Source: Falsiroseomonas oryzae (GTDB lineage: Bacteria > Pseudomonadota > Alphaproteobacteria > Acetobacterales > Acetobacteraceae). From it: a stretch of DNA of 56,330 nt. The stretch spans positions 1 to 56,330 of the forward strand of contig NZ_JAPSMD010000004.1 of NCBI RefSeq assembly GCF_027856955.1, read 5' to 3'. Made by a program: the position numbers and the translations under genes. This document shows positions 5,064 to 49,515 of the stretch, piece after piece (positions within the stretch are counted from its first letter, which is position 1; each line of letters begins with the position of its first letter). The notes below the pieces were generated by a model. The model was not told the origin of the DNA, searched no databases, and saw nothing but the letters and a program-made list of their open reading frames with translations.

Positions 5064-6024
5064 CGCCGGTCGCGCGGATCACCTCGGTCCAGCGCGCCGC
5101 ATCCTCGGCGATGAAGGCCTGGAACTCGGCTGGCCGGCTAGTTGCGCCATCCACGCCGAGCGGCTGCATGCGCGCCTGCGCCGCGGGCTCCGCCATGACG
5201 GCGGCGATGTCGGCGGAGATGCGCTCGACCAGCGCCGGCGGCGTGCCGCCGGGCGCTGCGACGCCGTTCCAGGACTGGCCGACGAACCCCGGCAGCGTCT
5301 CCGCCACGGTCGGCACATCGGGCCAGGCGCGGTGACGTGTCGGGCCGGTGGTAGCCAGCAGGCGGAGCCGTCCACCCTGCACATGTGGCCCGGTCGCAGC
5401 AAGCTGGTCGAAGATCGCGTCGAGGTTTCCCGCGACCAGGTCCGTCACCGCGGGCGCGCTGCCGCGATAGGGCACGTGCAGCAGTTCGATGCCCGCGCGC
5501 ATGCGGAACATCTCCCCGATCAGGTGCAGCGTCGTGCCAATGCCGGAGGAGCCGAAGCTCAGCGGACGTGCCGAGGCGCGGGCGAGCGCGATGAACTCCG
5601 GCACCGTACGCGCCGCCAACCCCGGGTGCACCGCGAAGGCGTGGTCGGCCGTGAACAGGATCGAGACCGGCGCCAGGTCTCGCATCGGATCGTAGGCCAG
5701 CGTCGGCAGCAGCACCCTGCCCAGGCTGATCGACACCGGCGAGCCCACCAGCAGCGTATGGCCATCGGGCGCCGCGCGGGAGACGAGCTCCCCGCCTACC
5801 GTGCCGCTCGCGCCCGCGCGGTTCTCCACCACGACCGGCCGGCCGTAGCGCTGTGCGAGGCCGTCGGCCAGGATGCGGGCGGCGCTGTCCGTCGCACCGC
5901 CCGGCGGGAACGGCACGACGATGCGCATGGGGCGTTCCGGGAAGGCTGAGACCTGCGCGGCGCTGCGGCGCAGGGCCGGTGCGGACAGGGCGAGGGCGCA
6001 GAGCGCACGACGTGTCAGGCTCAC
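5050..6024 (-). CDS. Bug-family (TctC-like) periplasmic solute receptor
   Basis: A 324-residue periplasmic receptor of the tripartite tricarboxylate transporter type. It shows the Bug hallmarks: RIVVPFPPGGATDSAAR after the signal sequence, VVVENRAGASGTVGGELV, PDGHTLLVG, and LAYDPMRDLAPVS. The start chosen is GTG 6024, because GGAG lies 6 bases upstream and the next residues form an Arg-Arg-led signal peptide ending near AAQVSA. Upstream extension of the frame reads into intergenic sequence. It faces the LLM gene at 4050-5063 and the two 3' ends overlap by 14 bp. Bug proteins usually bind carboxylates or small amides; the ligand here is not deducible. Confidence 0.88.
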   Translation of the reverse strand: MSLTRRALCALALSAPALRRSAAQVSAFPERPMRIVVPFPPGGATDSAARILADGLAQRYGRPVVVENRAGASGTVGGELVSRAAPDGHTLLVGSPVSISLGRVLLPTLAYDPMRDLAPVSILFTADHAFAVHPGLAARTVPEFIALARASARPLSFGSSGIGTTLHLIGEMFRMRAGIELLHVPYRGSAPAVTDLVAGNLDAIFDQLAATGPHVQGGRLRLLATTGPTRHRAWPDVPTVAETLPGFVGQSWNGVAAPGGTPPALVERISADIAAVMAEPAAQARMQPLGVDGATSRPAEFQAFIAEDAARWTEVIRATGVTLG

Positions 6025-18565: not shown

Positions 18566-18582
18566 GGCGCTTGCGGCGCCTC
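18564..18582 (+). terminator. Hairpin at the hyuB stop codon
   Basis: GAGGCGC (18564-18570) and GCGCCTC (18576-18582) form a perfect 7-bp stem with loop TTGCG, beginning inside the hyuB TGA. There is no T-tract, so this is a candidate weak or Rho-assisted terminator between the catabolic run and the cof operon. Confidence 0.4.
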
Positions 18583-18671
18583 GCACCGCGTGGAAGACTC
18601 GCGCCCGCCCGGGACATGGTGCCGCCTTGCTTCACATGCGCAACGCATTCGCGGACGGATCAGGCGCGCGA

Positions 18672-18692
18672 CGCGCCACTCGTCGTGGCGCG
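18672..18692 (+). other. Hairpin in the leader upstream of cofE
   Basis: CGCGCCAC (18672-18679) and GTGGCGCG (18685-18692) form a perfect 8-bp stem around loop TCGTC, 35 bases before the cofE ATG. It could be a leader structure or a palindromic operator for the F420 operon. Inverted repeats arise readily in such GC-rich DNA, so the function is unproven. Confidence 0.3.
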
Positions 18693-18727
18693 ACCGTCCC
18701 CACGACCGTGCCACGCCCCCGCTGACC

Positions 18728-19489
18728 ATGCGGGCGACGTCGCTGGCCGCCACCGCCCTGCCGGGCCTGCCGGAGATCACGCGCGGCGCCGATCTTGCGG
18801 GTCTCTTGGCCGAGGCGCTGCGACGCCAGGCGCTGAGGGTCGCGCGGCAGGACGTGCTGGTGGTGGCTCAGAAGATCGTCTCGAAGGCAGAGGGCCGCGT
18901 CGTGCGACTGGCCGACGTCCTTCCCTCCCCGCAGGCGGTCGAGCTCGCCGACCGGACGGGCAAGGATGCGCGGCTGGTGGAGGTGATCCTGTCGGAATCT
19001 CGCCGCGTCGTCCGCGCCGCGCCGCGCGTGCTGGTGGTGGAGCATCGTCTGGGCTTCGTCATGGCGAATGCCGGCGTGGACCAGTCCAATGTCGCGGACC
19101 CCGGGACGGCGCTGCTGCTGCCACAGGACCCGGATGCCTCCGCCGCACGACTGCGCGACGGGCTCGCCGAGCGGCTGGGCACCGCACCAGCCGTCATCGT
19201 CAGCGACAGCTTCGGGCGCGCGTGGCGCCGGGGCTCCGTCGGCACCGCGATCGGTGTCGCGGGGATGCCGGCGCTGCTGGACCTGCGCGGCCAGCCCGAT
19301 CGCGCCGGGCGTCCGCTGGAGATCACGACCGTCGGCTTCGCCGACCAGGTGGCCAGCGCTGCCGCGCTGCTGACCGGCGAGGCAGCGGAGGGCCGGCCCG
19401 CGGTGCTTGTCCAGGGCCTCGACTGGGAGGCCGCCGAGAGCGGCGTGGGCGCGCTGCTGCGTCCGCAGGAGGAGGACCTGTTCCGGTGA
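18728..19489 (+). CDS. cofE: Coenzyme F420-0:L-glutamate ligase CofE (single domain)
   Basis: A 253-residue GTP-dependent ligase that adds glutamates to F420-0. CofE motifs are VVAQKIVSKAEG at 45-56, ANAGVDQSN at 113-121 and SDSFGRAWRRGS at 159-170. ATG 18728 was chosen because the CofE homology starts there; no strong ribosome site is visible. The length is that of archaeal/proteobacterial CofE. The C-terminal flavin-binding reductase domain of actinobacterial FbiB is absent, which matters for the F420 tail chemistry. The stop overlaps the cofD GTG by 4 bp. Confidence 0.93.
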   Translation: MRATSLAATALPGLPEITRGADLAGLLAEALRRQALRVARQDVLVVAQKIVSKAEGRVVRLADVLPSPQAVELADRTGKDARLVEVILSESRRVVRAAPRVLVVEHRLGFVMANAGVDQSNVADPGTALLLPQDPDASAARLRDGLAERLGTAPAVIVSDSFGRAWRRGSVGTAIGVAGMPALLDLRGQPDRAGRPLEITTVGFADQVASAAALLTGEAAEGRPAVLVQGLDWEAAESGVGALLRPQEEDLFR

Positions 19490-20430
19490 AGGTCGTCGCG
19501 CTCTCCGGCGGAATCGGCGGGGCGAAGCTGGCGCTTGGCCTGATGCATGCGCTGGGGCCCCGTGAGCTGACCGTCGTCGCGAACACCGCCGACGATTTCG
19601 AGCACCTGGGGCTGCTGGTCTGCCCGGATCTCGATACGCTGCTCTACACCCTGGGCGGCCGGGCCGATGCGGAACGCGGCTGGGGCCGTGCGGGGGAAAG
19701 CTGGGGCTGCATGGCAGCGCTGGCGGAGCTGGGCGGACCGGACTGGTTCCAGCTGGGCGACCGCGACCTGGCGACGCATCTGCTGCGCACCAGCCGGCTC
19801 CGCGCAGGCGAGACGCTGACCGCTGTGATGAGCGACCTGGCTGCGCGGTTCGGCATTGCCGCGACGCTGCTGCCGATGTCCGACGACCCGGTCCGCACGC
19901 GCTTGAAGACGGCGCAGGGCTGGATGGAGTTCCAGCCCTGGTTCGTGGGCCGCCGGGCGGAGCCCGCGGTCACCGCGCTCGACTTCGCCGGCGCCGAGGC
20001 GGCGCGGCCGTCCGATGCCGTGCTTGCCGCCCTGGCCGATACGGAGCTCGGTGCGGTGGTTCTCTGCCCCTCCAATCCCTTCATCAGCATCGACCCCATG
20101 CTGGCCATGCCATGGCTGCGTGCGGCGCTGCACGGCTGCCGGGCGCCGGTGATCGCCGTCTCGCCGATCATCGCGGGGCAGGCGGTGAAGGGCCCCACTG
20201 CGCGCATGCTGGCCGGCTTCGGGCTGGAGGTCAGCGCAACGGCGGTCGCACGCCACTACGGCGAGCGGCTGTCGGGCTACGTGGTCGATTCGCAGGACGC
20301 CGCAGCCGCCGCGGCACTGGCGCCGCTGCCGGTGCGCGCCACGCGGACGCTGATGGTCAGCCTGGACGATCGCATCGCCCTGGCGCGCGAGGTGCTGGAC
20401 ATGGCACGCAGCATCGGCCCGCGGCGATGA
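19486..20430 (+). CDS. cofD: F420-0 synthase CofD/FbiA (2-phospho-L-lactate transferase family)
   Basis: A 314-residue transferase that joins the activated three-carbon phosphate tail to the deazaflavin Fo. Motifs are ALSGGIGGAK at 5-14, VANTADDFEHLGL at 31-43 with Asp50 after it, GDRDLATHLLRT near 91-102, PSNPFISIDPML near 180 and SPIIAGQAVKGP near 220. GTG 19486 is the start: it overlaps the cofE stop (GTGA) and has AGGAGGA upstream. Depending on CofC, the tail may come from phospholactate, phosphoenolpyruvate or 3-phosphoglycerate. The sequence alone does not say which. Confidence 0.94.
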   Translation: MKVVALSGGIGGAKLALGLMHALGPRELTVVANTADDFEHLGLLVCPDLDTLLYTLGGRADAERGWGRAGESWGCMAALAELGGPDWFQLGDRDLATHLLRTSRLRAGETLTAVMSDLAARFGIAATLLPMSDDPVRTRLKTAQGWMEFQPWFVGRRAEPAVTALDFAGAEAARPSDAVLAALADTELGAVVLCPSNPFISIDPMLAMPWLRAALHGCRAPVIAVSPIIAGQAVKGPTARMLAGFGLEVSATAVARHYGERLSGYVVDSQDAAAAAALAPLPVRATRTLMVSLDDRIALAREVLDMARSIGPRR

Positions 20431-21092
20431 GCGGGGTCCACGCCCTTCTGCCCATCAAGCTGGTGGCGCAGGCCAAGCAGCGCCTGGCCCGCGCGCTGTC
20501 CGCCGAGATGCGCGCCCGCCTTGCCCTGGCGATGGCCGAGGACGTGCTGGCCGCGCTGGCGGCCACGCCCGGCCTTGCCGGCATCACCGTGGTGACGGCC
20601 GACCCTGCTGCCGCCGCCCTGGCTGAACGCTACGGCGCGCGCGTGATCCAGGACGGCGCGCTGGACGGCCACACCGGCGCTGTCCTGGCCGGCACGCGGC
20701 GCCTGGCGGCGGAGGATGCCGCGGGCGTACTGGCGCTCCCGCTCGACGTGCCCTGCGTGACGCCGGCGGAGATCGCGGCGGTGCTGGACGCGCATGGCGC
20801 GCCGCCTGCCTTCACCATCGTGCCGTCGCATGACCGGATGGGATCGAACTGCGTGGTGGTTTCGCCGCCCGGTGCGGTTCCGCTGCGCTTCGGCGACGAC
20901 AGCTTCGCGCCGCACCTGGCGGCGGCCCGTGCCGCCGGCATCGCGCCGCGCACCCTGGACCTGCCGGGGCTCGCACTCGACATCGACCATCCGGCCGATC
21001 TGGCCGCCTTGCTACGCAGGGCGCCGACCACCCGCGCGCATGCGCTGCTGGCGGCAGCCAGCGCGCCGCAACTCCAGGACATGCCATCATGA
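20427..21092 (+). CDS. cofC: F420 tail guanylyltransferase CofC
   Basis: A 221-residue nucleotidyltransferase that activates the three-carbon phosphate with GTP for CofD. The N-terminal LLPIKLVAQAKQRLA (7-21) is the CofC signature. LALPLDVPCVTPAEI gives the metal/nucleotide Asp region, and IVPSHDRMGSNCVVV corresponds to the substrate loop. ATG 20427 overlaps the cofD stop, and its stop overlaps fbiC. In actinobacteria this function is FbiD. CofC is thought to set tail specificity, so this protein decides between classical F420 and 3PG-F420. Confidence 0.92.
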   Translation: MSGVHALLPIKLVAQAKQRLARALSAEMRARLALAMAEDVLAALAATPGLAGITVVTADPAAAALAERYGARVIQDGALDGHTGAVLAGTRRLAAEDAAGVLALPLDVPCVTPAEIAAVLDAHGAPPAFTIVPSHDRMGSNCVVVSPPGAVPLRFGDDSFAPHLAAARAAGIAPRTLDLPGLALDIDHPADLAALLRRAPTTRAHALLAAASAPQLQDMPS

Positions 21093-23452
21093 CGCCGGAC
21101 GCCGCGCTGGCCCTGGCCGGGCGCACCGACATCGACGCCCTCTGCGCCGAGGCCGCGGCGCTGCGCGATGCCGGGCACGGCCGGCGCGTGACCTGGTCGC
21201 GCAAGGTCTTCATCCCGCTGACGCAGCTGTGCCGCGACGTCTGCCACTACTGCACCTTCGCCCATCCGCCGCACGCCGGCGAAGCCCCCTTCCTCGACGA
21301 CGAGGCCGTGCTCTCCGTCGCGCGCGCCGGTGCGGCTGCCGGCTGCAAGGAAGCGCTGTTCACCCTGGGCGACCGGCCGGAGGCGCGCTGGGACGTCGCG
21401 CGGGACTGGCTCGCCGCGCGGGGCTTCGCCTCCACGCTGGACTATCTCCGGCACGCCGCGGGGCTGGTGCTGCGCGAAACCGGATTGCTGCCCCATCTCA
21501 ACCCCGGCGTGATGGCGCAGGAGGAGCTGGCGGCGCTGAGGCCCGTCTCCGCCTCCATGGGCGTGATGCTGGAGAGCGCGTCGGAGCGGCTCTCGGCCCG
21601 CGGCGGCCCGCATTTCGGCAGCCCGGACAAGCATCCCGCGGCGCGGCTGGCGACGATCGCCGCGGCCGGCGAGGCTGCCGTGCCCTTCACCTCCGGCATC
21701 CTGATCGGCATCGGCGAGACGCGGCGCGAGCGGATCGAGGCGCTGCTGGCGCTGCGCGAGCTGCACGCGCGTCACGGCCATCTGCAGGAAGTCATCGTGC
21801 AGAACTTCCGCGCCAAGCCGGGCACCCGCATGGCCGCCGCCCCCGACGCGACGCTGGAGGAGCTGCGCTGGACCATCGCCGTCGCGCGCCTGCTGCTGGG
21901 TGCGGAGGCGAACATCCAGGCGCCGCCGAACCTGTCGCCGGACGGCCTGGCGGCGCTGCTCGGCGCCGGCATCAACGACTGGGGCGGCGTCTCGGCCGTC
22001 ACGCCCGACCACGTGAACCCGGAACGCCCCTGGCCGCATCTCGACCGGCTGCGCGCCGCAACGGAGGCGGCGGGGCACGAGCTCGTGGAACGCCTGGCCA
22101 TCTATCCGGCCTGGGCGGCGCAGCCCACGCGCTGGCTGGATCCGGCCATGCGCGGCGCTGTCCTGCGTCAGTCCGATGCCACGGGGCTGGCGCGGGAGGA
22201 TGGATGGGTGACCGGCGCCGGCACGCCGCCTCGCGCCGTGCCGCGTCATCGCACGCCGATCGCGCGACTGCTGCACGCAGCGCGACGCGGCGAGAGCGCC
22301 GACGCGGACGACCTCCTCACCCTCTTCGACGCACGCGGCCGGGATCTCGACGCGGTGGTGGCCACCGCCGACGCACTGCGCGCCGAGGCCTGCGGGGACG
22401 TGGTGACCTACGCCGTCAATCGCAACATCAACTACACCAACCTGTGCACCTACGCCTGCGGCTTCTGCGCCTTCTCCAAGGGGCGCGGCCACGCTGACCT
22501 GCGCGGCCGTCCCTACGATCTCGACCTCGAGGAGATCGCCCGCCGCGCGGAGGAGGCCTGGGCACGCGGCGCCACCGAGGTCTGCCTGCAGGGCGGCATC
22601 CACCCCGACTACACCGGCGCCACCTACCTCGCCATCCTGCGCGCGGTGAAGGAGGCCGTGCCGGAGATGCACGTCCACGCCTTCTCGCCGCTGGAGATCA
22701 CGCAGGGCGCGCGCACCCTCGGGCTGGACCTGCGCGACTATCTGTCGCGCCTGCGGGATGCCGGCCTCGGCAGCCTGCCCGGCACCGCCGCGGAAATCCT
22801 GGACGACGAAGTGCGTGCCCTGATCTGTCCGGACAAGCTTCGCACGGACGAGTGGTTCGCCGTGATGGAGTCCGCGCATGCCGTCGGGCTCCGCAGCACC
22901 ACGACGATCATGTTCGGCCATGCGGAGCGGCCGGTGCACTGGGTGCGGCACCTGCTGCGACTGCGCGCGCAGCAGCAGCGCAGCGGCGGCTTTACCGAAT
23001 TCGTGCCGCTGCCCTTCGTTGCGGCGGAGGCGCCGCTCTACCGCAAGAGCCTGGCGCGGCGTGGCCCGACCTGGCGGGAGGCTGTGCTGATGCATGCGGT
23101 CGCCCGTATCGCGCTGCACGGCGCCATCCCGCACATCCAGGCGTCGTGGGTGAAGCTCTCGCCGGATGGCGCGGCGGCGATGCTGGCGGCCGGCGCCGAC
23201 GATCTCGGCGGCACGCTGATGAACGAGAGCATCTCCCGCGCCGCTGGCGCAGCGCATGGGCAGGAGCTGCCGCCGGCGGCGATGGAGCGCCTGATCCGCC
23301 AGGCCGGCCGCACACCGCGGCAGCGCAGCACGCTCTACGCCGAGGTGAGCGCCACGCGGCGCGCAGCCGCCGCCCATGCGGCGCCGCTGCAGCCGGTTGT
23401 GAACAGCCCGGCCGGCAAGCGCGCCCGGATTCACGCCGAGAGCCTGGGCTGA
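21089..23452 (+). CDS. fbiC: Fo synthase, fused CofG-CofH radical SAM enzyme
   Basis: A 787-residue fusion that makes the deazaflavin chromophore Fo from tyrosine and a diaminouracil. It has two radical SAM clusters: CRDVCHYC (Cys48, Cys52, Cys55) in the CofG half and CTYACGFC (Cys453, Cys457, Cys460) in the CofH half. Other motifs are QNFRAKPGTRM and APPNLSPD (CofG), and QGGIHPDYTG and GTAAEILDDEVR (CofH). The fused arrangement is the bacterial FbiC form. ATG 21089 overlaps the cofC stop, completing a four-gene coupled operon. Confidence 0.96.
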   Translation: MTPDAALALAGRTDIDALCAEAAALRDAGHGRRVTWSRKVFIPLTQLCRDVCHYCTFAHPPHAGEAPFLDDEAVLSVARAGAAAGCKEALFTLGDRPEARWDVARDWLAARGFASTLDYLRHAAGLVLRETGLLPHLNPGVMAQEELAALRPVSASMGVMLESASERLSARGGPHFGSPDKHPAARLATIAAAGEAAVPFTSGILIGIGETRRERIEALLALRELHARHGHLQEVIVQNFRAKPGTRMAAAPDATLEELRWTIAVARLLLGAEANIQAPPNLSPDGLAALLGAGINDWGGVSAVTPDHVNPERPWPHLDRLRAATEAAGHELVERLAIYPAWAAQPTRWLDPAMRGAVLRQSDATGLAREDGWVTGAGTPPRAVPRHRTPIARLLHAARRGESADADDLLTLFDARGRDLDAVVATADALRAEACGDVVTYAVNRNINYTNLCTYACGFCAFSKGRGHADLRGRPYDLDLEEIARRAEEAWARGATEVCLQGGIHPDYTGATYLAILRAVKEAVPEMHVHAFSPLEITQGARTLGLDLRDYLSRLRDAGLGSLPGTAAEILDDEVRALICPDKLRTDEWFAVMESAHAVGLRSTTTIMFGHAERPVHWVRHLLRLRAQQQRSGGFTEFVPLPFVAAEAPLYRKSLARRGPTWREAVLMHAVARIALHGAIPHIQASWVKLSPDGAAAMLAAGADDLGGTLMNESISRAAGAAHGQELPPAAMERLIRQAGRTPRQRSTLYAEVSATRRAAAAHAAPLQPVVNSPAGKRARIHAESLG

Positions 23453-24724: not shown

Positions 24725-24842
24725 ACCGGCGTAGCCCTGACTGCGTTCAGGGCTACGCCGGTCCAGCTTCTCTCGCCTCGCGATTCACGCCCTTCGCCGT
24801 ACCCACCTTCGGTGTGCACACTCAGGGCGATCGCGGGCTGAG
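24721..24842. repeat. Dispersed palindromic repeat, copy B (inverted, about 122 bp)
   Basis: This is the reverse complement of copies A and C; over the first 85 bases it matches copy C with about six differences. It starts with CTAG (24721), which supplies the MFS stop. Its other end supplies the TGA of the minus-strand gene at 24822, whose last residues (SPRSP) are encoded by the repeat. It fills the whole space between two convergent genes. Confidence 0.87.
24724..24763. terminator. 17-bp perfect hairpin within repeat copy B
   Basis: GACCGGCGTAGCCCTGA (24724-24740) pairs perfectly with its complement at 24747-24763 around a 6-base loop. It lies immediately after the MFS stop and about 60 bases beyond the end of the opposite gene. 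There is no T-tract on either strand, but the stem is very stable, so a bidirectional termination or mRNA 3'-end protection role is likely. Confidence 0.6.
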
Positions 24843-26528
24843 GCGCGCGACAAGGTCGTCGTGGAGCGTCAGCAGGCGCTCCGCGCTGAGCAGCGTGTAG
24901 ACTACTGGGCGCAGGTCGGTCGCCTCGAAGGCGCGGAACTCGGCGGCCAGGTCGAGCAGTTCCGCGAGGCTTGCTTCCAGCCGCGCACGGGCCTCCCGCG
25001 CTGCCTCCTCCGGCTGGGGCACGGAGAGGAATCGCGCCAGCGTCAGCGCGCGCGTCGCGCCGGCGAAGCCGCGGAGGTAGCGCCGTGCGATGGCGAAGTG
25101 CCGCCGCAACCCGTCCAGCGCCTCCGTCCGCAGGCCGGACGGCGGATCGTCCAGCGCCGCCGCCGCCGCGTCATGGATGGCGAGCGCCTCCTCCCGCTCG
25201 GTCAGAACGGCGTGCAGGGCTTCGGCCGTGGGTGCCAGCGCCCCGGACTTTGACGGATCCCAGTCGGCGAGGCTGTTCTTCTCCTCCGCCAGCCACCAGG
25301 CATGGTCGAAGCCAACGGGCAGGGTGCTGCTGTCGTTCAGGACGCAGCCCCGGGCGTAGAGCGTGCCGCCCACCGCGTCCCAGCTTCGGCCGAGCAGGCG
25401 TTCCGCCCAGGCACCGCAGGCGGCGCGGTGCACGGGCGTGTCGGGATCCAGCATGCCGGCGCGTGCCATCCACTCCGCATAGATCGCGGCGGCCGGCATC
25501 GCGGGATCCCGCCCCAGCATCGCGCCCGCATGCAGGTTCGCCATGTTCGGCGTGTGGAACGCGCTGTGGCTGTCCAGGCTCTCCCAGTCCGTGCGGAACA
25601 CCAGCCCGTCCACGCCGGCGGCACGCGCACGATCCAGCCGGCCGCGCCAGTCCTCGATCAGGATCGCCGGCGCGATGCCCCAGCCGAAATACTGGCCCAT
25701 GCAGTCGAATTCGAGCCACTGCCGTCGCGCCCCGACGCGCCCGATGCGGGGATTGTCGGGGAAGCTCGGGTAGTAGTCGTGCGGCGTGTTCTTCAGGCTG
25801 ACGGCGATATCGGCGGGCATCGCCTCGAAGGCGGCGGCCAGGTCCTCCTGCGCACGCCTGCTGAAGACGAAGTCGCGGATCACCAGCGACTTTCCCGCCG
25901 CCGCGATCGGGCGATGCATCGCGGCGATCAGGCGGGAGTACCAGCCGCGCGGGCTTGCCGCCGCGCAGAGCTCGCAGCGGCACCGGTTCGCCGTGATGGA
26001 CAGGCGGCTCTCGCCCGTGCCGGGCGCCGTCACCACGCCGGCCAGGCCGGGCAGCTCCTGGAACAGCTCAACGTATTTCGTCTCCACGAAGTCGAACCAG
26101 AAGGGCTCGTTGGGGCACAGGGCCCCGCCCTTGGTGAGTTCGGGCCGCAGCTCCAGGAAGATCTCGTGGAAGAAGAGCTCCTTGTTCTGGAACCAGACCT
26201 CGGTGCCCTGCCGCGCCGCGAGTTCGACGACGCGCCGCAGGTATTCGCGCCGGTGGTAAGGCCCGCTGCGGCGTGTGGGCGTGTACCTGTAGAGCGTGCG
26301 GAAGCTGTCGCGGTAGCGTTCGAAGATGCTGGCCGCGTTCGGGGCGGCGCCGAAATACCGCCCGGGCCAGACGATGCGGTCCACGATATCGTTGCGGTGC
26401 AGGACCAGCGCCGTCATGCCCTGCTCGGCGATGAAGTCCAGCGAACGCCGCACCCGGTCGAAATCCCAGACGAAGCGGCTGTGCATCTCGAGCGCGCGCA
26501 CGCGGAAGGCCGGCGCGCCGGCACTCAT
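24822..26528 (-). CDS. Uncharacterised large TIM-barrel-like protein, paralog 1 (GH67/DUF4838-like by motif)
   Basis: A 568-residue soluble protein without a signal peptide. In order it shows RALEMHSRFVWDFDRVRRSL (11-30), LVLHRNDIVD, EVWFQNKELFF (110-120), CPNEPFWFDFVETKY (138-152), NRCRCELC with Cys183, Cys185 and Cys188, LVIRDFVFSRRAQ, VSLKNTPHDYYPSFPDNP (243-260), WLEFDCMGQYFGWG and FRTDWES (311-317). The strand-helix rhythm and the Cys-x-Cys-x-x-Cys motif recall DUF4838/alpha-glucuronidase-like barrels, but no known function was recognised. ATG 26528 overlaps the stop of paralog 2 by 4 bp. The C-terminus runs into repeat copy B. Confidence 0.75.
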   Translation of the reverse strand: MSAGAPAFRVRALEMHSRFVWDFDRVRRSLDFIAEQGMTALVLHRNDIVDRIVWPGRYFGAAPNAASIFERYRDSFRTLYRYTPTRRSGPYHRREYLRRVVELAARQGTEVWFQNKELFFHEIFLELRPELTKGGALCPNEPFWFDFVETKYVELFQELPGLAGVVTAPGTGESRLSITANRCRCELCAAASPRGWYSRLIAAMHRPIAAAGKSLVIRDFVFSRRAQEDLAAAFEAMPADIAVSLKNTPHDYYPSFPDNPRIGRVGARRQWLEFDCMGQYFGWGIAPAILIEDWRGRLDRARAAGVDGLVFRTDWESLDSHSAFHTPNMANLHAGAMLGRDPAMPAAAIYAEWMARAGMLDPDTPVHRAACGAWAERLLGRSWDAVGGTLYARGCVLNDSSTLPVGFDHAWWLAEEKNSLADWDPSKSGALAPTAEALHAVLTEREEALAIHDAAAAALDDPPSGLRTEALDGLRRHFAIARRYLRGFAGATRALTLARFLSVPQPEEAAREARARLEASLAELLDLAAEFRAFEATDLRPVVYTLLSAERLLTLHDDLVARLSPRSP

Positions 26529-28198
26529 GCGCGCGCGGACCCGATCGCCGCGAGGCGGCGCGCCACGTCGTCTGCCAGCGACAGCAGCCGGCGCTCGTCC
26601 ATCAGCCAATACACGTAATGCGGGAAGGCCGTGTCCTGCATCCGCTGTGCGACCCGCGCGCAGAACGCACGCAGCGGCGGCAGCGTTGCCGCGGCGGCGG
26701 CCGCATCCCCCGGATCGCGCGTAACCTCGGCGCGGCGCGCGAGGAAGACCGTGCGCGCGCAATGCTCGAAGCCCTCGACCCATAGGGCGTAGAGCTCCAG
26801 CATCGTACCGAGCTCCGCCACCATCTCCGCCGGCAGCCCGAGCGCGCCGGCGGAGAGGATCGCCGGCAGTTGCCCTACCTCCTCCATCGCCGCCCGCTTC
26901 TCCGCCAGGATCGCCGCGATGTTCCCGGGCGTCGGCTCGAGCAGGCGCGACGCGCCCGGCTCCCACTCGTCGCGGCCGTGGATCTCCACCAGCATCGCGA
27001 AGGCCTTGTCCAGCGACTCCGGGTACTGGTCGTCCTCGTGGAACAGGTGGCCGCGCACATAGGCCGCCTTCTCCATCACGGACCAGGACGCCTTCATGAA
27101 CGCCTCCAGCCGACGCGGCGCGTCCGATGCGGTGGCGATCGCCGGGTCCTGGTTCTGCGACGCCGTGCGCAGCGGAGAGAGCAGCCCATGGGCCGCCCAC
27201 GCATCGTACACCTCGCGCAGGTCTCGTTCGACCCGCCGCGCCAGCATGCTGCCCGCGAAGACATTCAGCAGGTTCGGCCCGTTCAGCGCACCGCAATCCG
27301 TGATGACTTCCCAATCCGTCCGCAGCGAGATGCCCTCCACCCCCTTCGCCCGGCACTCGCGCATCCGCCTCTGCATGTCCTCCACGACGCTCACGGGAAA
27401 GGTGCCGAGGCCGAAGAACTGGCCCCAGGTGTCGAACTCCACCCATTGCCGGTGCGGGCCGCAATGGCCGATGCGCGGATTGGTCGGGAAGGTCGGGTAG
27501 TAGTCGTGCGGCGTGTTCTTCAGGCTGACGACGATGTCGGAGGAGACGCGTCCCGCGGCCTCGATCATCCGGCTCTGCTGGTCGGCGGTGTAGGAGAAGT
27601 CGCGCACCGCCAGGGTGCGTCCGAGTTCCGCCAGCGGCGCATGCATCGCACCCAGCAGCCGAGCATACCACTCCGTCGCGTCGATATCGGCGCTGTGCGT
27701 GGCGATGGAGACCTTGCTCTCCCGCGTGCCGGGGCTGACGATCACGCCCGCGAGGCCAGGTACGGCCGCCAGCAGCTCGCGGTACTTCGCCTCCAGGAAG
27801 CGCCACCAGAACGGATCAGCCGGGTCCACCGTGCCGTCTGCCCGCCGGAGTTCCGGCTTCAACTCAAGCAGGCCGTCAGCGAAGGATATCTCCTTCACTT
27901 CCAGGTAGAAGGCGATGCCGCGCGCCGCGCAGGCCCGGATGACGGTGTTGATGTAGTGGCGGTTCTGGTGGACGGAGTGCAGCCGGACCGGGTTGCGCTT
28001 CCACAGATAGGCGTCGGGGAACCATGCCTCGGGAAAGACGAGATGCTCGACCATGTCGTTCTGGTGGAACACCAGGGCGTTCAGGTCGAGCTTCTGCATC
28101 AGGCCCAGCGCGCGCTCCACCTGGGCCCATTGCCACATGCGATGGGAATGGAACTCCAGCGCGCGGAAGCCGAAGTCGGGCGATCCGTCTCCGTCCAC
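26525..28198 (-). CDS. Uncharacterised large TIM-barrel-like protein, paralog 2 (Cys motif lost)
   Basis: A 557-residue paralog of the genes at 24822 and 29393. Shared segments are FRALEFHSHRMW, LVFHQNDMVEHLVFPE, YLEVKEISFADGLLELKPEL (99-118), GLAGVIVSPGTRES, TLAVRDFSYTADQQ, VSLKNTPHDYYPTFPTNP and LRTDWEV. Where the other two have Asn-Arg-Cys-x-Cys-x-x-Cys, this one reads THSADIDATEW (168-178), so the Cys cluster is gone. GTG 28198 was taken as start: it lies just after the Bug stop and gives the same short N-terminus as the paralogs. A frame extending to 28453 would overlap the Bug gene heavily and is not credible. Confidence 0.72.
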   Translation of the reverse strand: MDGDGSPDFGFRALEFHSHRMWQWAQVERALGLMQKLDLNALVFHQNDMVEHLVFPEAWFPDAYLWKRNPVRLHSVHQNRHYINTVIRACAARGIAFYLEVKEISFADGLLELKPELRRADGTVDPADPFWWRFLEAKYRELLAAVPGLAGVIVSPGTRESKVSIATHSADIDATEWYARLLGAMHAPLAELGRTLAVRDFSYTADQQSRMIEAAGRVSSDIVVSLKNTPHDYYPTFPTNPRIGHCGPHRQWVEFDTWGQFFGLGTFPVSVVEDMQRRMRECRAKGVEGISLRTDWEVITDCGALNGPNLLNVFAGSMLARRVERDLREVYDAWAAHGLLSPLRTASQNQDPAIATASDAPRRLEAFMKASWSVMEKAAYVRGHLFHEDDQYPESLDKAFAMLVEIHGRDEWEPGASRLLEPTPGNIAAILAEKRAAMEEVGQLPAILSAGALGLPAEMVAELGTMLELYALWVEGFEHCARTVFLARRAEVTRDPGDAAAAAATLPPLRAFCARVAQRMQDTAFPHYVYWLMDERRLLSLADDVARRLAAIGSARA

Positions 28199-28212
28199 GG
28201 TGAACGCCGCCG

Positions 28213-29202
28213 CTACCGCGTCTGTCGCCGCACCACCTCGATGATGCCGGTCTCGGTGATGGTCTGGAGCTGACGCTGCTGGTCCTCCACCCATTTCCGC
28301 TGGAAGGCGGCGGCGTTCAGGTAGCGGGGCTGCAGCCCGTATTCGCGCACCGCCGCCTGCGCGGCGGGGGTGTTCAGCAGCTCGCCGAAGGCTGTGTCGA
28401 GACGCTGTATGATCTGTTCCGGCATGCCCCGCGGCGCGCCGACACCCTGCCACAGCGTCACGACGATGTCGTAGCCGAACTCGCGCGCAGTCGGGATGTC
28501 GCGCAGCGACGGGTCTTCAAGCCGGTTCTCGGCGAAGGCGCACAGCACGCGCACATTGCCGTTGCGGATCTGGTCGCGCAGATCGACCGGGTTGTTGGAG
28601 ATGGCGTGGATATGCCCGCCCAGCAGCGAGGCGATCAAAGGGCCCCCGCCAGGGAAGTTCACCGCCTCGATCTGCAGGTTGGCCGCGAGACGCAGCTTCT
28701 CCGGCCCGATATGAGACGTGTTTCCGTAGCCGGTGATGCCGTACATCAACTGGCCCGGACGGGCGCGCGACCACTCCACCAGTTCGGTCAAGGTGCGCCA
28801 CGGCGCATCTGCCTTGACCGCGAAGACAAAGGGGATCTCGCCCACCTGGGCAATCGCCTGCAGCTCCGTGGCGTAGTTGAAGCGGGCGTGGCCATAGAGC
28901 GGCTGGAACACCATGCCGCTGTTGGTCATGCCGATCGTGTAGCCGTCCGGCCGCGCCTGCACGAGTTCGTTCAGGCCGATCATCGCGCCGGCTCCGGGCC
29001 TGTTCTCGACGACGATCGGCTGGCCGAGCAGCTGCCCGGCCTCGCGCGCCAGGAACCGGCCGATGATGTCCGTGCTGCCGCCCGGCGCGAAGGGCACGAT
29101 CAGTCGCATCGGCCGGCTCGGATAGGCCTGCGCCATGGCGACGCGCGGTGCGACGGAGAGCAGGGCTGCTGCACCTGCCAGGGCGCGACGACGCTCGATC
29201 AT
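28213..29202 (-). CDS. Bug-family (TctC-like) periplasmic solute receptor
   Basis: A 329-residue receptor with a signal peptide (RRRALAGAAALLSVAPRVAMAQ) followed by Bug motifs RLIVPFAPGGSTDIIGR, IVVENRPGAGAMIG, PDGYTIGM and YGITGYGNTSHIGPEKL. GGGAGGGAACC precedes the ATG. It is the first gene of a minus-strand operon with paralogs 2 and 1 of the uncharacterised barrel family, 14 bp upstream of paralog 2. It probably captures the substrate or product of those proteins. No tctA/tctB lies nearby, so it may share permeases elsewhere. Confidence 0.9.
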   Translation of the reverse strand: MIERRRALAGAAALLSVAPRVAMAQAYPSRPMRLIVPFAPGGSTDIIGRFLAREAGQLLGQPIVVENRPGAGAMIGLNELVQARPDGYTIGMTNSGMVFQPLYGHARFNYATELQAIAQVGEIPFVFAVKADAPWRTLTELVEWSRARPGQLMYGITGYGNTSHIGPEKLRLAANLQIEAVNFPGGGPLIASLLGGHIHAISNNPVDLRDQIRNGNVRVLCAFAENRLEDPSLRDIPTAREFGYDIVVTLWQGVGAPRGMPEQIIQRLDTAFGELLNTPAAQAAVREYGLQPRYLNAAAFQRKWVEDQQRQLQTITETGIIEVVRRQTR

Positions 29203-29353
29203 CGTGGTTCCCTCCCCTTTTCGGCGTCGGCCTTCTGGCGCTGCCGTCCGGCGGAGCGTGCTTGCGGCAGGTCGGCCCTGTCAACCGCCTGCGATGCGCG
29301 CCTTGCGCACCCTGCATCGCGGTGTAGCCTGCCGCCAGCGGATCCGGCCGGGC

Positions 29354-29367
29354 GTGCGACGTCGCAC
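29354..29367 (+). promoter_or_regulatory. 14-bp perfect palindrome upstream of paralog 3
   Basis: GTGCGACGTCGCAC is its own reverse complement and lies 25 bases before the ATG at 29393, just ahead of the GGAAGGAGGAG ribosome site. It sits in the divergent region that also drives the Bug-paralog operon, so it is a candidate operator. The core GCGACGTCGC also occurs near 12572, which weakens uniqueness. Confidence 0.3.
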
Positions 29368-29392
29368 CTGCCGGAAGGAGGAGCAGCCCGTC

Positions 29393-31036
29393 ATGCAGCC
29401 CGGCACGCCGACCGCGGCACCGTTCCCGTTCCGCGCGCTCGAGCTGCACGGCCATGCGATCTGGCGACGCGACCGCGTCGCCCGGGCCTTGCAATTCATG
29501 CAGGCGCAGGGGCTGAACGCGCTGGTGCTGCACGAAAGCGACCTCGTGCACCAGGTCGTCTATCCGCGCAGCTGCTTCGACCCCTACGCCCTGTGGCGCG
29601 ATGCCCCGAGCCGACGCGGCGAGAACGCGATCTTCAACAACCGCGCCTATCTGGAGAGCGTCATTGCCCAGGCGTGCGCCGCGGGCGCGGAGACCTGGGT
29701 GAACGTCAAGGAGATCGGCTTCTCCGACGAGGTCCTCGCCCTGCGCCCGGAGCTGTTCAAGGCTGGCGCCGTCTGCCCCACCGAGCCCTTCTGGGCAGAG
29801 TACATCGCGGCAAAGACGGATGAGCTGCTCGGCGACTTCCCCGGCCTTGCCGGCATCATCGTCAGCTTCGGCTCGCAGGAAAGCCGTGCCTCGCGCGCCC
29901 AGAACCGCTGCCGCTGCGCGCTCTGCGCCGCCGAGCCGCTGGAGGCCTGGTATGGAAGGATCATCGCTGCCATGCACGGCCCCGTCACGCGGCGCGGCCG
30001 CCGCCTGGCGGTGCGCGACTTCGCCTACAAGCCGGAGGATCACCGGCCGCTGGTCGCCGCGATGCGCCGGGCTCCGCAGGAGGTCATCTTCTGCATCAAG
30101 GCGATGCCGCATGATTTCTACGTGACCTTCCCGGACAATCCGGCACTCGGCGTCCTGCAGGACCGTCCGCAATGGGTGGAGTATGACTGCCTGGGCCAGT
30201 TCTTCGGCTGGGGGATCATGCCCTGCCTGGTCCTGGACGACCTGGCCGGACGCGTGCCCCGCTGGCGTGCGCAAGGGGCCGCCGGCGCGATCCTGCGCAT
30301 GGAATGGGAGCGCATCAACGATCTCGATGCGCTGGACAACCTCGCAGAGGTGAACCTGATCGGCGCGGCCGCGCTGCTGCGCGGCGAGTCCTGCAGCGCG
30401 GAGACGGCTTGCGGCCGCTGGCTGGCGGCCCATGGCCATGACCCAGGCACCGCCACCTGGCTCACCGCGATCCTGCAGGCCACGCTGCCGATCGTCCGCG
30501 CCACGGCCTATACGGACGGTTTCGTCACCGCCGACAACAGCATGCTGCCGCGCAGCGTGGCGCGGGCGTGGTGGGGGGCGGAGACACGTGACGCGCTAAT
30601 TCCCTGGGCGCCAGAGCGGAATGGCGGCCTGGACCTGGACGCAGAGCGACTGGCAGATCTGATGGGCGAGAAGGCGGTGGCGCTGGAGGCAGCGCGGGTG
30701 CTCTCCGCGCGTGTGCGCGTCGGCGAGCCTGGCCTCGACCCCGCGCTGCATGCGCGGATCCGCGACGCCTTCGCGTGGTTCGAAATATGGGTGGAGGGCC
30801 ACTGCCTTGCATCACGCGTCTGCCTGCTGGCCCGACATGTCGATCGTCCTGGTGCGCGGGCGAGCGCGGCGACGCGTGCGGCGCTGCATGCCGCCGCATC
30901 GGAGCTCGAGACCTTCGCCGATCGCATCGCACCCTTGGCAGCGGACGGGTCCGTGCCGCACCAGGTGGTGATGCTGCTGGACCACAGGCGGGCACGGGAC
31001 ACGGCGGCGGAAGCGCGGGTCATCGCGGACGGCTGA
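29393..31036 (+). CDS. Uncharacterised large TIM-barrel-like protein, paralog 3
   Basis: A 547-residue paralog, divergent from the Bug-paralog operon. It has FPFRALELHGHAIWRRDRV (11-29), LVLHESDLVHQVVYP, TWVNVKEIGFSDEVLALRPE (101-120), CPTEPFWAEYIAAK, NRCRCALC with Cys173, Cys175 and Cys178, LAVRDFAYKPEDH, CIKAMPHDFYVTFPDNP, YDCLGQFFGWG and LRMEWER. In this copy KNTPHDYYP becomes KAMPHDFYV and RTDWE becomes RMEWE, so the putative active site has drifted. GGAAGGAGGAG lies just upstream of the ATG. No signal peptide, so it is cytoplasmic. The function is unknown; a sugar-acid or glycoside role is only a fold-level guess. Confidence 0.75.
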   Translation: MQPGTPTAAPFPFRALELHGHAIWRRDRVARALQFMQAQGLNALVLHESDLVHQVVYPRSCFDPYALWRDAPSRRGENAIFNNRAYLESVIAQACAAGAETWVNVKEIGFSDEVLALRPELFKAGAVCPTEPFWAEYIAAKTDELLGDFPGLAGIIVSFGSQESRASRAQNRCRCALCAAEPLEAWYGRIIAAMHGPVTRRGRRLAVRDFAYKPEDHRPLVAAMRRAPQEVIFCIKAMPHDFYVTFPDNPALGVLQDRPQWVEYDCLGQFFGWGIMPCLVLDDLAGRVPRWRAQGAAGAILRMEWERINDLDALDNLAEVNLIGAAALLRGESCSAETACGRWLAAHGHDPGTATWLTAILQATLPIVRATAYTDGFVTADNSMLPRSVARAWWGAETRDALIPWAPERNGGLDLDAERLADLMGEKAVALEAARVLSARVRVGEPGLDPALHARIRDAFAWFEIWVEGHCLASRVCLLARHVDRPGARASAATRAALHAAASELETFADRIAPLAADGSVPHQVVMLLDHRRARDTAAEARVIADG

Positions 31037-35985: not shown

Positions 35986-36966
35986 TCAGCCGAGCGTGAT
36001 GTTCGCCTCCCGGATCACCTCCAGCGCGCTGCGGCGCTGTTCCGCCAGCCAGGTCGCAAAGGCTTCCGGGGAGTTGCCGATCATGATCGCACCGGCGGGA
36101 TCCATCCGCGCACGCACGGCCGGGGAACGGGCGGAGACGGCGGCCGCCGCGGCCACCCGATCGATGATCGGCCGCGGCACGCCCGCCCCTGCGAACAACC
36201 CGTTCCAGTCGTTCAGGTCGAAGCCGGGGAAACCGGACTCGGCCAAGGTCGGGACGTCCGGCAGCGACGGGACGCGCTCGAGGCTGGTGACGGCCAGCAC
36301 CCGCGCGCGCCCGGCCTGGACCGGCGGACGGATGGAGGAGGTGGTGATCAGCACGGCGTCGATGTTGCCCGCCAGGATGTCGCGCGCTGCATCCGCGCCA
36401 CCCCGGTACGGCGCATGCACGAGGCGGATGCTCGCCCGCCGTTGGAAGGCGGCCAGTGCCAGATGCGCCATGCCGGCGGCCGGCGGCGTGCCCACGCTGA
36501 TCGTGCCGGGGCGGGCCTTGGCCAGCGCGATGAACTCCGCGATCGTGCGCGCGGGGAAGTCCTGCTTCACCGCGATGACCTGGGGAAAGGCAGAGATCTG
36601 CGTGATGGGCTGGAAGGCGGTGGCGTAGTCGAAGGGCAGGTCGCGCATCAGCGCCGGGTTGGTCAGCTGGTTCGCGGCATCCACCAGGAAGGTGTATCCG
36701 TCGCGCGGCGCCTGCAGCAAGGCGCTTGCCGCCACCACGGCGTTGCCGCCGGTGCGGTTCTCGATGACAATGTTCTGGCCCAGCGCCTCCTGCATGTCCG
36801 CCGCCAGGGCGCGCGCCGCAGTGTCGGCGGCGCCCCCTGCGGCGAAGGCCACGATCCAGCGCATCGGGCGGGTGGGCCATTCGGCCTGCGCCAAGGCCGG
36901 CCGGGCCAGCGCCGTCGCGGCGAGCGACGCGGCCAGCAGGCGGCGGCGGCTTATGTCGTGCGTCAT
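35986..36966 (-). CDS. Bug-family (TctC-like) periplasmic solute receptor
   Basis: A 326-residue receptor with an Arg-Arg-Arg signal (ISRRRLLAASLAATALARPALAQ), then RWIVAFAAGGAADTAAR, IVIENRTGGNAVVAASALL and PRDGYTFLVDAANQLTNPAL. It is closely related to the Bug protein at 44969-45952: both have DGYTFLV, NPxLM, FPQVxAV, GTPPxAGM, DAVILTTS and a C-terminal ANITL. The two belong to the facing operons of one catabolic locus. It is the last gene of the minus-strand amidohydrolase-to-leuB run, 34 bp after the leuB-like gene. Confidence 0.9.
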   Translation of the reverse strand: MTHDISRRRLLAASLAATALARPALAQAEWPTRPMRWIVAFAAGGAADTAARALAADMQEALGQNIVIENRTGGNAVVAASALLQAPRDGYTFLVDAANQLTNPALMRDLPFDYATAFQPITQISAFPQVIAVKQDFPARTIAEFIALAKARPGTISVGTPPAAGMAHLALAAFQRRASIRLVHAPYRGGADAARDILAGNIDAVLITTSSIRPPVQAGRARVLAVTSLERVPSLPDVPTLAESGFPGFDLNDWNGLFAGAGVPRPIIDRVAAAAAVSARSPAVRARMDPAGAIMIGNSPEAFATWLAEQRRSALEVIREANITLG

Positions 36967-48537: not shown

Positions 48538-49515
48538 ATGAGGATCGCAAGGCGCAGCCTTCTGTTTGCCGGCGTGGCCGGGCTCGCCGCCCGCCCTGCA
48601 ACGGCCCAGCCGCGCGAGTGGCCCAACCGCCTGGTGCGCGTGATCGTCCCCTTCGCGCCGGGCGGATCCACCGACGTGATGGGCCGGTTGATCGCCGACC
48701 GGTTCGGCGCGCTGTTCGGCCAGGCCTTCGTGGTGGAGAACCGGCCCGGCGCAGCGGGCATCATCGGCGTGGAGGCCGCAGCCCGCAGCCCGGCCGACGG
48801 GCACACGCTGCTGATCGGCACGATCAGCACGCATGCGATGAACGTGCCGCTCTACGGCGCCAGGCTGTCCTATGACCCGCTCCGGGACTTCCTGCCGGTG
48901 ACGCGGCTGTCCAGCGGCGTCAGCGCCGTGGTCGTGCATCCGGCGCTGCCCGTCACCGACCTGCCTGGGCTGATCGCCTATGCCAAGGCGCATCCCGGCC
49001 AGCTGAACTACGGATCCGGCGGGGCGGGCACCACGACGCATCTGGCAGCCGAGATGCTGAAGCACATGGCCGGCCTCGACATCGTTCACGTGCCCTTCCG
49101 CGCGCCGACGGCGGCGACCGTGGCGCTGGCCGGCGGACAGGTGCAGGTGATGGTGGACACGCTGGTCGCAACGCGCGCGCTGGTCCGCGAGGGGAAGCTG
49201 CGCATGCTCGCCGTCACCTCCCCGACCCGGCTCCCCGAATTCCCCGAGCTGCCCGCGGTGGCGGAGTTCCTGCCGGGCTTCGAGCTCAACGGCTGGACCG
49301 GCCTCTTCGTCCCGGCCGGGACGCCGCCGGCGCTGGTCGAGCGCCTGGACAACGCGGCGCGCGCGGTGCTGGCGGAAGGCCCGACGATGCAGCGTGTCGA
49401 AGCCGCAGGCGCAGTCGCGGCGCCGCTCGGCCCGGACGAGTTTGCCGCCTTCATCCGCGCCGAGATCGCCCGCTGGACCACCGTGGTGCGCGCGGCCGAC
49501 ATCCGGCTCGACTAG
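48538..49515 (+). CDS. Bug-family (TctC-like) periplasmic solute receptor
   Basis: A 325-residue receptor with signal RRSLLFAGVAGLAARPATAQ and motifs RVIVPFAPGGSTDVMGR, FVVENRPGAAGIIGVEA, PADGHTLLIG and LNYGSGGAGTTTHLAAEML. Its type is closer to the classic Bug consensus (ENRPGA, GGSTDV) than the receptors at 35986 and 44969, so the ligand is probably different. It is the last gene of the plus-strand operon, 25 bp after the aldolase. Its TAG stop is inside the CTAG that begins repeat copy C. Confidence 0.9.
   Translation: MRIARRSLLFAGVAGLAARPATAQPREWPNRLVRVIVPFAPGGSTDVMGRLIADRFGALFGQAFVVENRPGAAGIIGVEAAARSPADGHTLLIGTISTHAMNVPLYGARLSYDPLRDFLPVTRLSSGVSAVVVHPALPVTDLPGLIAYAKAHPGQLNYGSGGAGTTTHLAAEMLKHMAGLDIVHVPFRAPTAATVALAGGQVQVMVDTLVATRALVREGKLRMLAVTSPTRLPEFPELPAVAEFLPGFELNGWTGLFVPAGTPPALVERLDNAARAVLAEGPTMQRVEAAGAVAAPLGPDEFAAFIRAEIARWTTVVRAADIRLD

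What the first reader, a model, noticed from the sequence alone, without database searches (positions are those of the whole stretch)
24822..31036. Three divergent paralogs of an unrecognised ~550-residue protein family beside a Bug receptor
The three genes share blocks such as RALExH, LVxHxxD, VKEI/NKEL, PHDYYP-type and RTDWE-type motifs along their full length, yet differ strongly elsewhere. Three copies in 6 kb, two in an operon with a periplasmic receptor and one divergent, suggest a dedicated system, perhaps enzymes acting on related sugar-acid-like compounds. The catalytic-looking RTDWE is kept in two and altered to RMEWE in paralog 3.
Basis: partly seen in the sequence, partly recalled or inferred. 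Interest (0 to 1): 0.78.

Follow-up and report, generated by a model that had tools for sequence, protein, structure and literature searches.

The report
Three uncharted uronic-acid-glycosidase-like barrel enzymes
The three neighbouring genes encode members of a widespread but unnamed enzyme family that folds like the enzymes which cut uronic acids off plant sugars; the substrate is still unknown, and the three copies are three old branches that recur together beside uptake systems in distant bacteria.

Summary
Observation confirmed. P1 (24822-26528, -), P2 (26525-28198, -) and P3 (29393-31036, +) are full-length paralogs (34-37% identity), the only three in this genome, and none passes a Pfam or NCBIfam cut-off. 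AlphaFold2 models of P1 and P2 match GH67 alpha-glucuronidases best (VIA Z 23.8 and 22.7), followed in Foldseek by GH138. Alignment to GH67 keeps the catalytic acid (E173), R218, K246 and one base candidate (D251), but the other (GH67 E393) is an invariant Gln, and the GH67 N-terminal domain is missing: GH67/GH138-like, not GH67. The paralogs belong to three deep clades, each spanning several phyla; 18 of 52 other loci combine two or three of them. By a crude gene survey, 40 of 52 have a transporter gene nearby. Five of 52 have uronate- or pectin-related neighbours (one weak), and a distant branch sits beside rhamnogalacturonide genes. Best reading: cytoplasmic exo-glycosidases that release a uronic acid from imported carboxylated glycosides. 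Fold, clades and linkage are shown; hydrolysis and substrate are inferred. P3's 'altered' RMEWE is its clade's usual form; P2 has instead lost a near-invariant CxCxxC.

The parts
24822..26528 (-). P1, clade A member of the GH67/GH138-like family, 568 aa
26525..28198 (-). P2, clade B member, 557 aa (GTG start inferred); overlaps P1 by ATGA; lacks the CxCxxC element
28213..29202 (-). TctC/Bug-type periplasmic receptor; closest to TctC proteins found beside family members in other genera
   Evidence: PF03401 E=4.3e-52
29393..31036 (+). P3, clade C member, 547 aa, divergent from the TctC-P2-P1 group; RMEWE is the clade C form of the motif
26010..26012 (-). P1 codon of E173, aligned with the GH67 catalytic acid (E292 of Cellvibrio GlcA67A, E285 of Geobacillus AguA)
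25965..25982 (-). P1 CxCxxC element (C183, C185, C188), kept in 68 of 70 rows
25776..25778 (-). P1 codon of D251, aligned with D365 (Cellvibrio) / D364 (AguA)
25692..25694 (-). P1 codon of Q279, invariant Gln where GH67 has Glu (E393 / E392)

Best explanation
P1, P2 and P3 are cytoplasmic GH67/GH138-like (beta/alpha)8-barrel glycosidases (no signal peptide is evident by eye; no predictor was run) that remove a uronic or similar carboxylated sugar from small glycosides imported by the adjacent receptor and a transporter. E173 acts as general acid, D251 (helped by D275/E273) activates water, and R218 and K246 hold the carboxylated sugar in the -1 pocket. The three clades would cut related linkages or act in sequence on one imported oligosaccharide. 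Shown: homology, predicted fold, conserved residues, three old clades, recurrent linkage to uptake genes. Inferred: hydrolysis, an inverting mechanism, the uronic-acid substrate, the division of labour.
For: Foldseek's top hits for two models from different alignments are GH67 (1mqr, E 1.2e-13 and 3.2e-14), then GH138; VIA Z 23.8 (3.7 A, 437 aligned) and 22.7 (4.0 A, 432 aligned) for GH67. Profile against solved sequences: AguA at whole-sequence E=3.4e-4. Profile-profile with three GH67 proteins: E=2.1e-6, placing E173, R218, K246 and D251 on the GH67 acid, R325, K360 and D365 (numbering through). E173, R218, K246 are 70/70, D251 69/70. A transporter gene within 3 kb on the same strand in 40/52 loci; TctA 17 genes in 15 loci against about 1.6 expected from 112 per 53.4 Mb. 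Uronate or pectin neighbours: UxaC 78 bases upstream on the same strand in Jiangella L032; GH28 and GH88 in L019; a divergent GH78 rhamnosidase in L040 and L041; GH28, GH88/RhiN and MFS_2 beside the distant branch in L100/L110, GH28 and a sugar SBP in L109.
Against: No activity is known for any member. The GH67 E393 position is Gln in 70/70, and the GH67 Lys four residues before the acid is Ser or Ala in 70/70. Direct uronate or pectin genes were seen in only 5 of 52 loci, one of them (L046) only a fructuronate-reductase-like protein far below its model's cut-off, and not every neighbour was identified (86 of 185 selected ones were scanned, which shows only the 25 commonest families; others singly). 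The window has no uronate gene recognised beside the cluster, and the own genome lacks UxaC, though it has three PF04295 genes. An ADP-ribosylglycohydrolase-like partner in 7 loci hints at other substrates. In VIA, GH20 barrels tie with GH138 for P1.
Confidence: 0.55

Rival explanations
1. The barrel is reused for a non-hydrolytic step on a sugar acid (isomerisation, elimination, or reaction with an oxidised keto-glycoside made by the neighbouring dehydrogenases).
For: The second GH67 base candidate is invariantly Gln; an SDR dehydrogenase lies within 3 kb on the same strand in 11/52 loci; 2-hydroxyacid dehydrogenases (6 of 86), RraA-like (3) and enolase-type proteins (2) occur among the scanned neighbours.
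Against: The catalytic-acid Glu and the D365 equivalent are kept, as are R218 and K246. Of four SDRs scanned, two pass only a generic glucose-1-dehydrogenase subfamily model and two pass none of the 25 shown, so they may simply process the released sugar.
Confidence: 0.2
2. One or two of the three (P2 without CxCxxC, or P3 of clade C) are catalytically silent partners that regulate or scaffold the active one, for instance as a hetero-oligomer.
For: Recurrent pairing of different clades (18 of 52 loci, and the window); P2 and its Roseomonas AR75 orthologue alone lack the Cys element.
Against: E173, R218, K246, E273, D275 and Q279 are kept in all 70 rows; 31 of 52 loci show a single member, though some contigs are short; P2's modelled barrel is as confident as P1's.
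Confidence: 0.15
3. Plain GH67 xylan alpha-glucuronidases that diverged in sequence only.
For: GH67 is the closest fold and sequence match.
Against: E393 equivalent is Gln in 70/70, the N-terminal domain is absent (P1 aligns from residue 135 of 1l8n), and GH67M is matched only weakly.
Confidence: 0.04
4. GH20/GH84-like N-acetylhexosaminidases.
For: GH20 and GH84 barrels follow in the fold lists; in VIA, GH20C rows tie with GH138 for P1 (Z 21.2 against 21.0); 4/70 members touch PF00728, best E=0.036.
Against: They rank below GH67 in all four lists and below GH138 in both Foldseek lists; their long alignments have larger rmsd (over 6 A). The GH20 catalytic motif itself was not examined.
Confidence: 0.04

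Closest known systems
GH67 alpha-glucuronidase (Geobacillus AguA 1l8n/1k9d/1mqr; Cellvibrio GlcA67A 1gqi/1h41)
   Same: Barrel plus C-terminal helical part; acid Glu, R325, K360 and D365 equivalents in place
   Different: About 13% identity; no N-terminal domain; E393 equivalent is Gln; extra CxCxxC; three co-occurring clades beside TTT or ABC uptake genes
GH138 BP0997 (6hzg, 6hze, 6hzf), an enzyme for rhamnogalacturonan II
   Same: Second family in both Foldseek lists; 6hzg aligns over 489 (P1) and 508 (P2) residues at Z 21.0 and 21.1. Its homologue BT0997 (homology recalled) is called an alpha-galacturonidase in passages of PMC7939467
   Different: 12% and 10% identity; catalytic residues not compared here; in VIA, tied with GH20C for P1
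GH115 alpha-glucuronidase BoAgu115A (4c90, 4c91)
   Same: Related barrel lower in the Foldseek lists; passages of PMC3879575 say GH115 and GH67 share the core fold and not the active-site residues
   Different: Weaker match; longer protein (811 residues in the structure)
Tripartite tricarboxylate transporter receptors (TctC/Bug)
   Same: 28213-29202 is a member; solved relatives include BugD, Bug27 and a terephthalate-binding protein
   Different: Ligand unknown; no TctA or TctB gene recognised beside it

Membership tests
GH67 | Passes the curated model PF07488 (GH67 middle domain) | tested here: not met
   P2 12.2 bits against a cut-off of 23.5, P1 and P3 no hit; best of 70 members E=0.0023 (which gives no bit scores; below the cut-off by inference from the E-value)
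GH67 | Catalytic acid Glu (E292 Cellvibrio / E285 AguA) | tested here: met
   E173 aligned with it, 70/70
GH67 | Both further catalytic carboxylates (D365 and E393; roles recalled) | tested here: not met
   D251 kept in 69/70, but the E393 position is Gln in 70/70
GH67 | N-terminal domain ahead of the barrel | tested here: not met
   Models start at about residues 134-148 of the GH67 chains
GH67 | Release of (Me)GlcA from xylo-oligosaccharides | not testable with these tools
   needs an assay
GH138 | Fold of BP0997 | tested here: met
   Z 21.0 (3.6 A, 489 aligned) for P1 and 21.1 (4.2 A, 508 aligned) for P2; a shared fold only
GH138 | GH138 catalytic residues and RG-II activity | not tested
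   The GH138 structure paper is not held
DUF4838 (PF16126) | Passes the curated model | tested here: not met
   1 of 70 members, E=0.038; none of P1, P2, P3
GH20 (PF00728) | Passes the curated model | tested here: not met
   4 of 70 members, best E=0.036; none of P1, P2, P3
GH115 | Fold and active-site residues | tested here: inconclusive
   Lower-ranked Foldseek match only; residues not compared
TTT receptor (PF03401) | Passes the curated model | tested here: met
   177.8 bits against 27

The most novel reading that the evidence does not exclude
A new glycoside hydrolase family of cytoplasmic alpha-uronosidases, organised as three old clades that are assembled again and again into one uptake-and-cleavage module across phyla. 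GH67's two candidate base residues are divided between its branches: the main branch keeps Asp (D251) and has Gln for Glu, while the distant branch beside rhamnogalacturonide genes has Glu at that place, Arg for the Asp, and Asp as acid. That would be a natural experiment on which residue is the base in GH67-type enzymes.
Probability: 0.35. Interest if true: 0.66.

Novelty: new variant of a known kind. Interest (0 to 1): 0.52.

Why it matters
A restrictive scan of one genome per species found 52 loci of this family in several phyla, and a distant branch is in 21 of 25 genomes of one genus, yet none of 70 members was placed by Pfam and none of the three window proteins by NCBIfam. If the members are uronosidases, they explain how bacteria that import carboxylated oligosaccharides intact free the uronic acid inside the cell, and they give the neighbouring orphan receptors a candidate ligand class. 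The residue swaps would also test GH67 catalysis.

Tried and rejected
Recent local triplication: rejected; each window copy is nearest to a different deep clade, with orthologues at 82, 79 and 73% in Roseomonas AR75. Decayed catalytic site in P3: rejected. The Bug receptor as evidence by itself: rejected, since the own genome has at least 150 (150 of 253 candidates scored). A search for DUF4838 relatives in 100 genomes of the phylum gave none, so no residue comparison was possible. Phmmer of P2 against solved structures gave only a chance hit (E=0.83). At DNA level E. coli genomes have no match to L109's gene. Paper searches listed no paper that by title or abstract start treats this family; the lists were capped (for instance 20 of 181) and the library is open-licence only. 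Promoter and terminator scan: nothing above shuffles. Gene calls in the loci came from a crude script that dropped or mis-started some genes, family members among them; members were therefore counted from six-frame profile hits, and distances were measured to their stop-to-stop frames. Neighbour labels rest on one or a few Pfam-scanned representatives per cluster, and clusters 17 and 18, counted with the peptide-type group, were not scanned. From 85 non-window hits, 67 full-length ones went into the alignment and 18 partial ones were dropped. In one search hits aligned over 400 residues or less, those of L100 and L112, were left out, although L112's gene reads 531 aa in one frame. L112's neighbours are a Gfo/Idh/MocA and a Fic protein, which gives no support for a pectin role there.
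Full report
OBSERVATION. The window holds three full-length paralogs: P1 24822-26528 (-), P2 26525-28198 (-) and P3 29393-31036 (+), 568, 557 and 547 aa, 34-37% identical to one another. A TctC/Bug receptor (28213-29202, -) precedes P2 and P1 in the same direction; P2 and P1 overlap by ATGA; P3 is divergent. The own genome has no further member. Its locus L004 reads C, LacI, TctC, B, A, as in the window but with a LacI regulator.

FAMILY. P1-P3 hit no Pfam or NCBIfam model above its cut-off. A scan of one genome per species gave 52 loci, from Acetobacteraceae, Bosea, Devosia, Microvirga, Comamonadaceae, Paenibacillus, Clostridia, Moorella, Spirochaetes, Actinomycetes, Atribacteria, Opitutae and one archaeal MAG among others; it used two short patterns, so this is a lower bound. 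The family is rare in the own order (3 of 299 genomes: the own one and two that hold only pieces) and phylum (5 of 398, the own one included). Six-frame profile hits gave 67 full-length relatives; 18 partial hits were dropped. Of the 70 rows, 21 touch GH67M weakly (best E=0.0023), 4 GH20 and 1 DUF4838; the other hits listed are scattered and weak.

THREE OLD CLADES. A maximum-likelihood tree of the 70 rows gives clades A (37 rows, with P1), B (22, with P2) and C (11, with P3), each with starred support and several phyla (midpoint root, so which clade is basal is unknown). Of 52 loci, 21 hold two or more members or pieces; 18 of these combine different clades (A+B 8, A+B+C 4, A+C 3, B+C 3) and 3 have one clade only (L055 is frame-broken, and short pieces were assigned by best match). 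So the window's trio belongs to a recurring set and is not a local expansion.

FOLD AND RESIDUES. AlphaFold2 models of P1 and P2 from different alignments have mean pLDDT 94.5 and 94.6. For both, GH67 alpha-glucuronidases are the best solved matches and GH138 comes next in Foldseek (1mqr E 1.2e-13 and 3.2e-14). VIA gives GH67 Z 23.8 (3.7 A, 437 aligned) and 22.7 (4.0 A, 432 aligned), and 6hzg (GH138) Z 21.0 and 21.1. GH20 and GH84 barrels follow; for P1, GH20C rows tie with GH138 (Z 21.2, but 6.8 A). P3 was not modelled. A profile search of solved sequences finds AguA at E=3.4e-4 for the whole sequence, its best single stretch at only 0.52. Profile-profile alignment with three GH67 proteins (L067-L069) gives E=2.1e-6, probability 89%. 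With numbering through 1gqi and 1h41 (the E292A title of 1h41 and E386Q of 1mqr fix it), E173 = E292 (acid), R218 = R325, K246 = K360, D251 = D365, E273 = E386 of AguA, Q279 = E393. E173, R218, K246, E273, D275, Q279, R312 and E316 are 70/70, D251 69/70. That GH67 uses D365 and E393 as further catalytic carboxylates, and R325 and K360 near the sugar, is recalled, not read. The GH67 Lys four residues before the acid is Ser or Ala in 70/70. A CxCxxC element follows the acid loop in 68 of 70; P2 and its AR75 orthologue are the two without it. Its role is unknown.

DISTANT BRANCH. A 26%-identical relative in Klebsiella aerogenes NCTC10006 (two frame-broken CDS, L100) lies beside genes annotated RhiN, transport proteins and polygalacturonase. 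These are enterobacterial by inference only: L110 has the gene order of the Klebsiella locus. L110's neighbours are PF07470 (GH88), MFS_2 and GH28; L109's are SBP_bac_1 and GH28; L112's are a Gfo/Idh/MocA and a Fic protein, without pectin genes among the two scanned. In the 7 sequences compared the E173 position is Asp, D251 is Arg, Q279 is Glu and the Cys element is absent, while R218 and K246 are kept. They are 23-26% identical to P1, so these columns carry alignment risk.

NEIGHBOURHOOD. On the same strand within 3 kb of a member, 40 of 52 loci have a transporter gene: TTT 18, ABC 20, peptide-type 2. Twelve have none by this rule, among them loci with full flanks (L034, L052); L040 and L041 have a divergent SBP gene. 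Cluster labels rest on one or a few scanned representatives. In 12 genomes chosen for having TTT genes beside the family, TctA matches, fragments included, number 112 in 53.4 Mb, so about 1.6 are expected in the 755,612 bases of the loci; 17 genes in 15 loci were seen. The window receptor is closest to TctC proteins of these loci: 14 of the 22 score above the best of the 29 own-genome receptors compared (of at least 149 others). SDR dehydrogenases lie within 3 kb on the same strand in 11 loci. Direct uronate or pectin genes: UxaC 78 bases upstream in Jiangella L032, above its model cut-off; GH28 and GH88 in L019; divergent GH78 alpha-rhamnosidase in L040 and L041; a mannitol-dehydrogenase-family protein nearest to fructuronate reductase, far below that model's cut-off, in L046. 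That is 5 of 52 loci, counting the weak one. An ADP-ribosylglycohydrolase-like gene follows the family gene in 7 loci. Neighbours were not identified completely. In the own genome UxaC is absent, GH67 is absent and three PF04295 genes are present.

READING. The fold, the kept acid and Asp, the two kept basic residues, the uptake genes and the uronate or pectin links point to a cytoplasmic exo-glycosidase for carboxylated glycosides. Against filing it under GH67: one catalytic carboxylate and the N-terminal domain are missing and the curated model is not met. Hydrolysis itself, the anomeric outcome and the substrate are inferences.

LITERATURE. Passages of PMC3879575 describe GH67 as alpha-glucuronidases acting at the non-reducing end and sharing a core fold with GH115; passages of PMC7939467 name BT0997 an alpha-galacturonidase. 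The listings of searches showed no paper on this family; lists were capped and the library holds open-licence papers only.

Noticed in passing
window 20364-23452: CofC (PF01983) and a large radical-SAM protein with a CofH C-terminal region (PF19288), i.e. coenzyme F420 biosynthesis genes in a probable alphaproteobacterium; the ORF before CofC (within 18571-20430, +) looks like CofD by eye.
   Followed up: partly
own genome: At least 150 TctC/Bug receptor genes in 6.45 Mb; besides 28216-29202, three more in this window (5056-6012, 35998-36954, 48547-49377).
   Followed up: partly
window 26525-28198 and L004:6325-7992: P2 and its AR75 orthologue are the only 2 of 70 aligned members without the CxCxxC element after the acid loop.
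   Followed up: yes
L036, L037, L038, L042, L043, L049, L053: A 620-890 aa protein, in L042 with an ADP-ribosylglycohydrolase domain (PF03747) and similar in the other six, directly follows the family gene; suggests a different substrate there.
   Followed up: partly
L050 (Nitrososphaeria MAG): A clade B member and a piece of a second side by side on a 3.1 kb contig assigned to an archaeon; could be a binning error.
   Followed up: no
L019:15417-16805: A group II intron maturase (RVT_1, GIIM) lies between the GH28 and GH88 genes of the [Clostridium] asparagiforme locus.
   Followed up: no
L109-L111, L113-L116: Distant, presumably enterobacterial branch with Asp at the acid and Glu at the Q279 position; GH28/GH88 neighbours where scanned.
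   Followed up: partly
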